From positions 21,195 to 85,194 of the forward strand of contig CACYHN010000002.1 in assembly GCA_902774275.1 (NCBI GenBank): 64,000 bases of DNA, in the 5' to 3' direction. The translations under genes and the position numbers were made by a program. Under the pieces are notes generated by a model. The model was not told the DNA's origin, ran no database searches, and saw only the letters and a program-made list of their open reading frames with translations. This document shows positions 16,725-41,144 of this stretch, piece after piece. This DNA comes from an uncultured Bacteroidales bacterium (GTDB taxonomy: Bacteria > Bacteroidota > Bacteroidia > Bacteroidales > Bacteroidaceae). Within the stretch, counting starts at the first letter, position 1; each line of letters opens with the position of its first letter.

Positions 16725-16917
16725 GCGGAACTATCAGATTGGGGAGACAACGTTCCGAGGCTACTCAGCCTCCTTTCCGGACCCTAAACGTCGAACTCGG
16801 CATTTTTAGTCCCCTATGGGGCCTAACATGCCTCAAACATGCGCCGTTCTTAACGGGATCCTCCAAGGGGCTTCGCTTACGCCTCTTCACTGATGCTCCC
16901 CAATCCGATAGTTCCGC
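16725..16917 (-). ncRNA. Structured intergenic repeat (family SR1), intact copy
   Basis: 193 nt closed by 22-bp inverted arms (16725-16746 and 16896-16917). In minus orientation it contains the hairpin CCGTT-AAG-AACGG, a CCCC/GGGG hairpin inside a GGCAT/ATGCC helix, the conserved blocks GGATCCCGTTAAGAACGG and GAGTTCGACGTTTAGGG, and an ACGTT/AACGT helix. A second copy, split by the IS element, lies at 39369-41144 with the same blocks but different, still complementary stems. Just outside the arm, TTTCCCTTTGCAGGA (minus strand, 16918-16932) is conserved in both copies and resembles a -7 box. No reading frame is conserved. I do not know its function; it is treated as a candidate RNA. Confidence 0.6.
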
Positions 16918-39368: not shown

Positions 39369-39484
39369 GCAGGACATAGGATCTGAAGACCATCTGTGCA
39401 GAGGCGTTAAGCGGAGGGCCTTGGAGGATCCCGTTAAGAACGGCGCATGTTTGACGAACGTTGCACACCGGAGGTGGGCAAAAG
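39369..39484 (+). ncRNA. Structured intergenic repeat SR1, second copy, 5' part
   Basis: Left arm 39369-39390 (begins GCAGGACATAGGATCTG), then conserved GAGGCGT, GGATCCCGTTAAGAACGG and CGCATGTTTGA. A hairpin CACC-GGA-GGTG replaces CCCC-ATA-GGGG of the 16.7-kb copy. It is cut by the IS element after AAAAG at 39484. Joined to 41072-41144 it would be 189 nt, against 193 in the intact copy. Confidence 0.65.
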
Positions 39485-39493
39485 TTCCTATGT

Positions 39494-39502
39494 TTGAAAT
39501 CC
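39494..39502 (+). repeat. Left subterminal inverted repeat of the IS
   Basis: TTGAAATCC, nine bases inside the proposed left end, exactly complementary to GGATTTCAA at 41052-41060. Confidence 0.65.
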
Positions 39503-39515
39503 CAAAGAAATGTAC

Positions 39516-39608
39516 AGCACCTGCGTATGCAAGCACCTGGACGCTCTCGGGGGTTTCGAATCCCCTGCCGCTATGGCAGCCCCTCGGTGTTTTTCACAGT
39601 ATAAAAAT
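39516..39608 (+). other. Structured 5' non-coding region of the IS
   Basis: Direct repeats AGCACCTG (39516 and 39532), a GGGG-8 nt-CCCC hairpin with a T-arm-like loop (39550-39565) and CTGCC/GGCAG (39565-39579), followed by GGTGTTTTT. It could be a small terminator-like structure protecting the recombinase from outside transcription. It is not a tRNA. Confidence 0.45.
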
Positions 39609-39673
39609 AAGCTGTAGATATTTTTGGTTACATTTAAAAGACCAATCATAAACAAACCAAAATATTACAGCTT
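39609..39673 (+). promoter_or_regulatory. Large hairpin ending at the recombinase start codon
   Basis: AAGCTGTAGATATTTTTGG (39609-) pairs with CCAAAATATTACAGCTT (to 39673) around a loop of about 25 nt. The ATG follows at once (39674). Such a stem could block ribosome access in read-through transcripts. Confidence 0.55.
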
Positions 39674-40747
39674 ATGGAACAAAGGAACGAATTAAACTTC
39701 AAAGGACAAAACATCTACATAGGATTGGATGTCCATTTAAAGAGTTGGACTGTTACGGTACTGTCGGAGGTATCGGTCCTAAAAACCTTCAGTCAGGAAC
39801 CTGATCCGGATAAGCTTTATCGCTATCTGTGCAACAATTACCCCAATGCAGAGTATTACTCTGTCTATGAAGCAGGTTTCTGTGGTTTCTGGATTCATCA
39901 CAGATTGACACAACTCGGTATACACAATATTGTCGTAAACCCGGCCGATGTGCCTACAATGACTAGTGAGAGACTACGTAAGACTGATGCTGTGGACAGC
40001 AAGAAACTGGCAGTCGGATTAAGAGCCAAGCAGCTAAGAGGTATTTATACTCCTGATGATGAAGCTATAGAAGTAAGATCGCTAATCAGACTAAAAAGTA
40101 CGATAGCCAAGGATATCACACGCCAAAAGAATCGTATCAAATCACATCTGAGATATCTTGGCATTGAGATTCCTCAGGAATACACAGGTCGTAGCTTCCA
40201 TTGGCCAATGAGATTTATAGATTGGCTGCGTGACGTTTCCATTAAAACATCCTGTGGACGTCAGACTCTTGATATGCACATCAGGAGACTGGAAGAGTTA
40301 CACGCACAGAATCTTGAAATAACCAGAGAAATAAGGGAGTTGTCACGAACCGACCGTTTTAGTGAAATACACTCACTTCTGATGACCATTCCCGGTATCG
40401 GAAGAACCGTCAGTCTTATTCTTATGGCTGAGATAATTGACATAAAACGTTTTAATAGCTCAGAACAACTGGCTGCTTACATAGGTATGATTCCGATGTG
40501 TCACAGCAGCGGTGAACACATCGGTAGAGGGAATATAACTGTACGTAGGCAAGCAACCTTAAGGTCTGTCGTTATTGAAGCCGCTTGGGCTGCCATAAGA
40601 CAGGATCCGGCATTACAACTGTATTATGCCAACAACTGCAAGCGTATGCCTCCTGGCAAGGCGATAATCAAGGTTGCCAGAAAACTGATTAACAGGATAT
40701 ATTTTGTGCTCAAAAGGCATCAACCATATGTCCATGCTGTGGCATAA
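39674..40747 (+). CDS. IS110-family recombinase (transposase)
   Basis: 357 residues. The N-terminal DEDD/RuvC-like domain has Asp19 (IYIGLDVH), Glu66 (SVYEAGF), Asp105 and Asp108 (LRKTDAVDSKKLA). A coiled middle part (about 145-225) links to the Tnp domain with helix-hairpin IPGIGRTVSLILMAEI and CHSSGEHIGRGNITVRRQ, where Ser279 is the likely nucleophile. The gene looks intact. It catalyses strand exchange between a donor end and a target under RNA guidance. It is preceded by a hairpin and followed by the predicted guide RNA. Confidence 0.95.
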   Translation: MEQRNELNFKGQNIYIGLDVHLKSWTVTVLSEVSVLKTFSQEPDPDKLYRYLCNNYPNAEYYSVYEAGFCGFWIHHRLTQLGIHNIVVNPADVPTMTSERLRKTDAVDSKKLAVGLRAKQLRGIYTPDDEAIEVRSLIRLKSTIAKDITRQKNRIKSHLRYLGIEIPQEYTGRSFHWPMRFIDWLRDVSIKTSCGRQTLDMHIRRLEELHAQNLEITREIRELSRTDRFSEIHSLLMTIPGIGRTVSLILMAEIIDIKRFNSSEQLAAYIGMIPMCHSSGEHIGRGNITVRRQATLRSVVIEAAWAAIRQDPALQLYYANNCKRMPPGKAIIKVARKLINRIYFVLKRHQPYVHAVA

Positions 40748-40779
40748 TGAACTTTATCCTTTTGGTCAAACAGTCTTTC

Positions 40780-40920
40780 TGAGAGATAATACTACGAACT
40801 CAGTGCGGCTTTGAAGTCCGCTTCTAAAAGTGTGCTACTCTCACCTTTGTAAACTAATGAAGGAATATGCGTCATCTCTATGATGTGCGCTGTGGAAAGG
40901 CTGTTTACCAAAGGATTTTT
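40780..40920 (+). ncRNA. Predicted bridge RNA of the IS110-family element
   Basis: Loop 1: stem TGAGAG/CTCTCA (40780-40785/40838-40843) encloses an internal loop capped by the GCGG/CCGC hairpin (40805-40821). Its strands contain CGAACTC (40795-40801), complementary to GAGTTCG just right of the element (41072-41078), and AAAAG (40826-40830), identical to AAAAG ending at 39484. Loop 2: stem CCTTTGTAAAC/GTTTACCAAAGG (40844-40914), capped by GCGTCAT/ATGATGTGC. Its strands contain AGGAA (40861-40865), complementary to left end TTCCT (39485-39489), and TGGAAAGG (40893-40900), identical to right end 41062-41069. T5 follows the second stem, as in a terminator. The 5' end may lie nearer 40748. Confidence 0.6.
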
Positions 40921-41051
40921 CGACCCTTATTCAAGGGCCGATGCCTACTTACATGCTTATTATAAACGATTTATGAAGAGATAAAAACCTAACTCTATCA
41001 TATAGTGACACATACAAATAACATTTTGAGAAAAAACTTCTCAAAAGATTT
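40921..41051 (+). other. Right non-coding flank of the IS
   Basis: It contains the small hairpin CCCTT-ATTC-AAGGG and, near the right end, the 9-bp inverted repeat TTTTGAGAA/TTCTCAAAA (about 41024-41047). No gene is visible. Confidence 0.55.
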
Positions 41052-41060
41052 GGATTTCAA
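41052..41060 (-). repeat. Right subterminal inverted repeat of the IS
   Basis: GGATTTCAA, nine bases inside the proposed right end, the complement of 39494-39502. Confidence 0.65.
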
Positions 41061-41071
41061 CTGGAAAGGAG

Positions 41072-41144
41072 GAGTTCGACGTTTAGGGTCCGGAGAGGTC
41101 CGGAGTAGCCTCGGAACGTTGCGTCTTCAAATCCTATGTCCTGC
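41072..41144 (+). ncRNA. Structured intergenic repeat SR1, second copy, 3' part
   Basis: It starts GAGTTCGACGTTTAGGGTCC, continues with AGTAGCCTCGGAACGTTG and closes with the arm 41123-41144 (GTCTTCAAATCC...CCTGC), complementary at 21 of 22 positions to the arm at 39369-39390. Confidence 0.65.

What the first reader, a model, noticed from the sequence alone, without database searches (positions are those of the whole stretch)
40748..40925. Predicted bridge RNA of an IS110-family element, with all four guide strands matching the element's junctions
Downstream of the recombinase the RNA folds into two adjacent internal loops, each with an outer stem and a capping hairpin. Loop 1 strands: CGAACTC (40795-40801) pairs with GAGTTCG right of the element (41072-41078); AAAAG (40826-40830) equals AAAAG left of it (39480-39484). 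Loop 2 strands: AGGAA (40861-40865) pairs with left end TTCCT (39485-39489); TGGAAAGG (40893-40900) equals right end 41062-41069. All four matches abut the same proposed AG core. In both loops the 5' strand pairs with the top right half and the 3' strand with the bottom left half, as in a target loop followed by a donor loop. Bridge RNAs are known for IS110/IS621; this Bacteroidales example, 3' of the gene, with a definite target, appears undescribed.
Basis: partly seen in the sequence, partly recalled or inferred. Interest (0 to 1): 0.88.

Follow-up and report, generated by a model that had tools for sequence, protein, structure and literature searches.

The report
Bridge-RNA insertion sequence in a repeat

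Summary
The element is real: an IS110-family insertion sequence of IS1111-like build, about 39484-41067, with a folded RNA downstream of the transposase gene. The bridge-RNA reading holds. In 24 distinct elements, the window's among them, both target-loop strands match the element's own flanks far better than foreign flanks (0 of 20,000 shuffles each). The fold is conserved with compensatory changes. An orthologous empty site exists in another species of the genus.

Corrections. The empty site reads GGGCAAAAGGAGGAGTTCG, not GGGCAAAAGGAGTTCG, so the right end lies 3 nt further in. Three of the four strands reach the core; the fourth, CGAACTC, pairs 3 nt away from it. The corrected ends also rebuild a Bacteroidota-type promoter at the circle junction (TTG exactly 20 nt before the TATGTTTG position in 47 of 50 junctions).

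The target is a roughly 200-nt structured repeat seen only in this genus. All 15 exact ends of this IS type found in two genomes sit at the same base of different repeat copies.

Bridge/seekRNAs 3' of the gene are published for IS1111 elements, so this is a new member of a known kind. More novel: 15 of 21 guides in the closer group carry an anti-start-codon.

The parts
39484..41067 (+). insertion sequence, IS1111-like, about 1584 bp; ends can slide by up to 3 nt within the AAAG shared by both junctions (39481-39484 / 41065-41068)
   Evidence: orthologous empty site L032; end motifs A|GNNNNTATGTT and TGGRAA| in relatives
39674..40747 (+). DEDD transposase/recombinase, 357 aa
   Evidence: Pfam DEDD_Tnp_IS110 and Transposase_20; NCBIfam NF033542 IS110 family RNA-guided transposase, 220.7 bits vs cut-off 140
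39483..39484 (+). left core dinucleotide AG
   Evidence: AG precedes the left end in the relatives' ends listed; the extraction pattern itself required AG
   Evidence: empty site, end motif TGGRAA|, circle-junction promoter spacing
39494..39502 (+). left subterminal inverted repeat TTGAAATCC
   Evidence: 9 bp here, 19 bp in L002
41052..41060 (+). right subterminal inverted repeat GGATTTCAA
40754..40922 (+). predicted bridge RNA / seekRNA (true ends unknown)
   Evidence: single fold z = -5.6 for 40748-40925; consensus fold of 16 RNAs, 11 of 30 pairs with compensatory change
40780..40785 (+). target-loop outer stem, 5' side TGAGAG (pairs with 40838-40843)
   Evidence: stem with different sequences in relatives (TGGGAAG/CTTCCCA, CCAGAG/CTCTGG, CGGGGG/CCCCCG)
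40838..40843 (+). target-loop outer stem, 3' side CTCTCA
40795..40801 (+). target loop 5' strand CGAACTC; pairs with top strand GAGTTCG 41072-41078, three bases away from the core
   Evidence: score 7 on own flank, best of 23 other flanks 4; register offset +2, outside the -2 to +1 of the other elements scoring 5 or more
40805..40821 (+). target-loop capping hairpin GCGGCTTTGAAGTCCGC
   Evidence: conserved with compensatory changes
40826..40830 (+). target loop 3' strand AAAAG; matches left flank AAAA|G with the core
   Evidence: weak alone (score 5, equal to best foreign flank)
40861..40866 (+). donor loop 5' strand AGGAAT; pairs with left end G|TTCCT (the last pair is G-U)
   Evidence: same best register in 13 of 13 elements; 101 of 20,000 shuffles reach the observed score
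40869..40890 (+). donor-loop capping hairpin
40893..40899 (+). donor loop 3' strand TGGAAAG; same as right end TGGAAA plus core G
   Evidence: right-end hexamer found in 12 of 13 RNAs (not L109); L058 carries TGGGAA in both end and RNA
39369..39483 (+). left part of the interrupted target repeat, beginning with stem arm GCAGGACATAGGATCTGAAGAC
41068..41144 (+). right part of the interrupted target repeat, ending with stem arm GTCTTCAAATCCTATGTCCTGC

Best explanation
An IS110-family element built and arranged like the IS1111 group. It encodes a DEDD recombinase and, downstream, a bridge RNA (seekRNA). The RNA's first loop selects the target: its 5' strand pairs with the top strand right of the core and its 3' strand with the bottom strand left of it. 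The second loop holds the element's joined ends in the same way. The recombinase excises the IS as a circle and inserts it at AAA-AG inside a roughly 200-nt structured repeat, in one orientation and without duplicating target bases. Joining the ends recreates a Bacteroidota-type promoter (TTTG-N20-TATGTTTG) that probably transcribes transposase and RNA. Shown here by sequence comparison: element, ends, empty site, target reuse, loop-flank co-change, donor co-change, conserved fold. Inferred from published relatives: RNA expression, RNP formation, the circle, and strand exchange.
For: Cognate guide-flank match in 24 distinct guide pairs: 5' strand mean 7.33 vs 2.93 for foreign flanks, 3' strand 5.58 vs 3.45, 0 of 20,000 shuffles each. 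L002 and L003 have identical guides in different surroundings and share AAAAAAAGGT on the right before they diverge. Orthologous empty site L032: 97% over 1504 nt on the right, 89% over 1471 nt on the left, reading GGGCAAAAGGAGGAGTTCG. Target reuse: 3 right and 3 left ends in the own genome, 4 right and 5 left ends in G005, all at the same base and orientation in different repeat copies; neither pattern was found in the other 35 of 37 genomes. Those patterns held target bases, so I repeated the search in these two genomes with end-only patterns: the same 7 right and 8 left ends came back, and the only other right end was that of L002. Covarying fold. Donor co-change. Circle-junction promoter spacing in 47 of 50 junctions. 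Strand order and 3' position as published for IS1111.
Against: In the window's own copy the 5' strand pairs 3 nt away from the core; its register offset (+2) lies outside the -2 to +1 of the other elements scoring 5 or more. L061 fits its flanks on neither strand and L113 not on the 3' strand. L058 and L059 share guides and left flank, but L058's right flank fits poorly. Apart from the window copy, the ends at this target in the own genome and G005 lie in contigs that stop inside the IS, so their guides are unread, and their last 63 bases are only 79-80% identical to the window's. Only 30 of 83 loci gave both flanks and a recognised cap hairpin. The junctions are not independent, and the TTG lies beside or in the inverted repeat, which may be conserved for other reasons. 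No Rfam match. There are no expression data.
Confidence: 0.93

Rival explanations
1. One reading: core at 41070-41071, empty site GGGCAAAAGGAGTTCG, all four strands abutting the core.
For: With that boundary the window's 5' strand would fall in the register of its relatives (registers; my arithmetic).
Against: The orthologous empty site and two repeat copies in two further genomes have the extra GAG; relatives' ends stop at TGGRAA; the other 6 right ends at this target, in two genomes, read TGGAAAGGAGGAGTTCG as the window does; promoter spacing would become 23 instead of 20 (my arithmetic).
Confidence: 0.04
2. The RNA is a bridge RNA, but the window copy's target guide has drifted or was programmed for a slightly different repeat variant (for example one with CTGAGTTCG at the core), and this insertion used an imperfect site or was made by a related copy's RNP acting in trans.
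For: Register outlier at +2; related IS copies with diverged right ends occupy the same target in the same genome; seekRNAs are said not to be rigorously confined to very closely related transposases (PMC11187229 section read).
Against: None of the repeat copies printed carries CTGAGTTCG; seven consecutive pairs are still formed.
Confidence: 0.35
3. The RNA fold is an ordinary regulatory or terminator structure, and the junction matches are chance or simple insertion-site homology.
For: AAAAG and TTCCT are short and common (163 and 169 occurrences on both strands of the window).
Against: Guide-flank co-change across distinct elements, donor-end co-change and variable loop strands beside conserved hairpins.
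Confidence: 0.02

Closest known systems
IS1111-group elements with seekRNA (ISEc11, ISKpn4, ISPst6, ISPa11; Siddiquee et al. 2024, PMC11187229)
   Same: RNA downstream of the transposase gene; top-strand match 5' of bottom-strand match; subterminal inverted repeats; no target duplication; one orientation; use of repeated, folded targets (ISPa11 in REP, ISKpn4 in attC).
   Different: The perfect inverted repeat is 9 bp in the window copy (19 bp in L002) and the terminal extensions are about 10 and 7 bp, against the published 11-13 bp and 7/3 bp. The target is a different, genus-specific repeat. The circle promoter is of the Bacteroidota type.
IS621 bridge RNA, IS110 group (Durrant et al. 2024, PMC11208160)
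   Same: Two guide loops, target then donor, each contacting both strands around a dinucleotide core.
   Different: RNA is 3' rather than 5' of the gene; strand order reversed in each loop; longer inverted repeats. Transposase only distantly related (IS621 8wt6 E = 1e-9, ISCro4 9t56 E = 3e-14).
IS900 (IS110 family by recall), said in the title of Doran et al. 1997 to target translation initiation signals
   Same: Relatives of the window element also insert just before ATG codons, some of them gene starts.
   Different: The window copy itself does not; its target is the repeat. The IS900 paper was seen only as a reference title.

Membership tests
IS110 family | N-terminal DEDD (RuvC-like) domain and C-terminal Transposase_20 domain with an SG motif | tested here: met
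   Pfam hits, NCBIfam NF033542 above cut-off; S279-G280 invariant among 6 aligned proteins. Positions D19, E66, D105, D108 read by eye, their role recalled.
IS1111 group | longer non-coding region downstream of the transposase gene | tested here: met
   about 320 nt from stop codon to right end, about 190 nt from left end to start codon; the RNA lies in the downstream part. Some IS110-type elements also have a 3' region.
IS1111 group | subterminal inverted repeats, usually 11-13 bp | tested here: inconclusive
   present but only 9 bp perfect in the window; 14-19 bp in L002, L054, L057
IS1111 group | terminal extensions of 7 and 3 bp (occasionally 6 and 3) | tested here: not met
   about 10 and 7 bp here, counted. 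For this reason I call the element IS1111-like and do not file it as a strict member of the group.
IS1111 group | top-strand match 5' of bottom-strand match in the RNA | tested here: met
   definition
IS1111 group | transposase clusters with IS1111 transposases in a phylogeny | not tested
bridge RNA / seekRNA | loops co-vary with target and donor sequences | tested here: met
bridge RNA / seekRNA | conserved structured RNA | tested here: met
bridge RNA / seekRNA | RNA expressed and bound by the transposase | not testable with these tools
   needs small-RNA sequencing or pull-down

The most novel reading that the evidence does not exclude
A Bacteroidota lineage of IS1111-like elements has split by guide. 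One branch carries target-loop guides containing the complement of ATG, so that the IS lands a few bases before start codons and leaves the gene's coding frame intact. The window's branch has been re-aimed at a genus-specific, probably mobile, structured repeat. Both keep a circle-junction Bacteroidota promoter at a fixed 20-nt spacing, and the 5' target strand tolerates a variable gap of 0-3 bases from the core.
Probability: 0.45. Interest if true: 0.6.

Novelty: new member of a known kind. Interest (0 to 1): 0.42.

Why it matters
It gives an independent, purely comparative test of the 3' bridge-RNA model in a phylum where my searches of an open-licence library showed no such description: four strands, an empty site, target reuse and co-change with flanks. 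It also gives a set of naturally differently programmed guides with their targets, including guides aimed at start codons, useful for finding the pairing rules and tolerated gaps of RNA-guided recombinases in Bacteroidota.

Tried and rejected
Rfam for the RNA and for the empty repeat: no match up to E = 1. Viral contigs: 4 distant relatives only. Plasmids: 4061 records, all below 60% identity, not used further. The first end/hairpin patterns left 0 of 83 loci complete and were corrected (30 of 83). These patterns were written after I had seen several matches by eye; flanks and guides were then taken by rule. Further searches in relatives' genomes gave some more transposases; their flanks and RNAs were not examined and are in no count. 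L055 looked like a start-codon insertion, but the frame carries the tail of a peptidase M41 domain, so its ATG is probably internal. A paper on a Bacteroides beta-lactamase gene (PMC9472255, passages) mentions IS110-like elements nearby but no start-codon targeting in the passages seen. No covariance model, structure prediction or transposase tree was made.

Full report
What was checked. The RNA stretch folds far better than shuffles (z = -5.6, 0 of 200). The gene upstream is an IS110-family transposase, related only distantly to IS621 and ISCro4 of known structure.

Ends and empty site. The left flank of the element is part of a sequence repeated in the genus: 23 of 150 genomes searched, the own included, all of one genus, with at most 5 matches scored per genome. 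One copy, L032 in another species of the genus, lies at the orthologous locus (97% identity over 1504 nt on the right, 89% over 1471 nt on the left) and has no insertion. It reads GGGCAAAAGGAGGAGTTCG, as do copies in L033 and L034. Both junctions fit an exchange within the shared AAAG with no lost or duplicated base: left CAAAAG|TTCC, right CTGGAAAG|GAGGAGTTCG.

The end rule is general. One genome-contig scan gave 91 confirmed relatives, of which 80 loci were kept. In those whose ends could be recognised, the left end is A|G plus four variable bases plus TATGTT, and the right end is TGGRAA in the closer group or CATAGAA in the more distant group. Rebuilding the circle junction for the 50 of 83 loci with both end patterns puts TTG exactly 20 bases before the TATGTTTG position in 47 of 50 (exceptions L060, L067, L127). 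TAnnTTTG is present in 44 of 50, and TAnnTTTG with TTTG 17-23 bases upstream in 22 of 50. The 50 are not independent; six are copies of one element in one genome. TAnnTTTG at -7 with TTTG near -33 is the published promoter of the Bacteroides primary sigma factor (PMC7366714, one passage seen). A promoter formed by joining the ends is published for IS1111 and IS110 elements (PMC11187229, introduction and discussion read).

Do the loops know the flanks? For 30 of 83 loci with both flanks and a recognised capping hairpin (53 dropped: truncated contigs, or end or hairpin not recognised by the patterns), reduced to 24 distinct guide pairs, the 5' target strand scores 7.33 on its own right flank against 2.93 on foreign flanks. 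The 3' strand scores 5.58 on its own left flank against 3.45. Neither is reached in 20,000 shuffles. The 11 elements of the closer group alone (the window included) also give 0 of 20,000 for both. The own flank is best or tied best in 19 of 24 and 16 of 24. Failures: L061 on both strands, L113 on the 3' strand. Good examples: L052 AATAGTTATG, L065 AGGAATGCAA and L081 AGTTCGTGA match base for base. The second IS of the own genome, L002, and L003 of another species have identical guides and share AAAAAAAGGT on the right before their sequences diverge; only 6 bases of L003's left flank are in its contig.

The window's own guide. Its 5' strand scores 7 (best of 23 foreign flanks: 4), but at register +2, while the other elements scoring 5 or more lie between -2 and +1. 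Three target bases next to the core stay unpaired. Either gaps are tolerated or the guide has drifted; the data do not decide.

Donor loop. In 13 of 13 elements of the closer group the donor 5' strand fits the left end best in one and the same register, with changes that follow the left end (101 of 20,000 shuffles reach the score). L052 is a mismatch at the variable position. L058 carries TGGGAA in both its right end and its RNA; the right-end hexamer is found in 12 of 13 RNAs.

Structure. RNAalifold on 16 RNAs gives the outer stem and both capping hairpins; 11 of 30 pairs show changes on both sides. The stem closing the target loop is not in that consensus, since the alignment is out of step there. 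Searched sequence by sequence, a helix of 4-7 bp is found in 16 of 16, with clearly different sequences; in L061 and L063 the best helix is a doubtful one. Near-duplicate rows (L062, L063, L064, L125) are in the set.

Target reuse. The right-end-plus-target pattern is found 3 times in the own genome and 4 times in G005, and in none of the other 35 genomes of the genus searched. The left-end pattern is found 3 and 5 times. All sit at the same base of different repeat copies and in the same orientation. These patterns held target bases; end-only patterns in the same two genomes returned exactly these 7 right and 8 left ends, and besides them only the right end of L002, which has other guides and another target. 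Apart from the window copy, the contigs stop inside the IS, so those RNAs cannot be read, and their right ends are only 79-80% identical to the window's.

The repeat. About 200 nt, with closing arms that vary but stay paired: 28 of 61 consensus pairs in 9 copies show compensatory change, single-copy DNA fold z = -7.1, no Rfam match up to E = 1. In a sample of 201 genomes of the family its core pattern is found in 8, the own included, all of this genus. Folded repeats are known targets of IS1111 elements: ISPa11 in REP, ISKpn4 in attC.

Start codons. In 21 elements of the closer group (the window included) the complement of the 5' target guide contains ATG in 15. Of the 13 of these with a readable right end, 11 have an ATG beginning at base 4 to 9 after the junction; for L063 this holds only for the second of two candidate ends. 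Four of those ATGs open frames with Pfam support from near their beginning: TonB receptor L060, integrase L062, RmlD L064, glycoside hydrolase 2 L126. Two more frames (L063, 58 codons; L128, 100 codons, open at the contig end) have no Pfam hit. L055 is probably an internal ATG of a peptidase M41 gene. L052, L053, L057 and L109 open only 10-13 codons. Several elements are near-identical, so the counts are not independent. IS900 was reported to target translation initiation signals (title only, in the reference list of PMC8141618).

Known or new. Bridge RNAs (PMC11208160: passages and section 12 read) and seekRNAs (PMC11187229: abstract, sections 4, 6, 9, 12, 13, 14 and passages read) are published, including the 3' location, the strand order seen here and predicted bridge RNAs in 93% of the IS1111 elements of ISfinder. 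Searches aimed at this lineage and at start-codon guides listed no description of either, judged from listings and a few passages in an open-licence library. The element is filed as an IS110-family member of IS1111-like build with a predicted bridge RNA, a new member of a known kind. It is not filed as a strict IS1111 member, because its terminal extensions differ from the published lengths and its transposase was not placed in a tree.

Noticed in passing
39369-39483 plus 41068-41144; a second copy around 16779-16861 (- strand); copies in L032-L050 and L135-L142: A roughly 200-nt structured repeat with closing arms that vary yet stay complementary, many copies per genome, seen only in this genus in the samples searched, no Rfam match: perhaps an undescribed palindromic mobile element or structured RNA.
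   Followed up: partly
L051-L053, L055, L057, L060-L064, L084, L109, L125, L126, L128: Relatives whose target guide contains the complement of an ATG; in 11 of 13 with a readable right end an ATG begins at base 4-9 after the junction, and four of these ATGs start frames with Pfam support.
   Followed up: partly
circle junctions of 50 elements; window 41049-41067 joined to 39484-39497: Fixed 20-nt spacing between TTG/TTTG in the right end and the TATGTTTG position in the left end, a Bacteroidota-type promoter formed only when the ends are joined.
   Followed up: partly
L034 1445-1632 (-) and 1721-1868 (+): Two copies of the structured repeat in opposite orientation about 90 bases apart.
   Followed up: no
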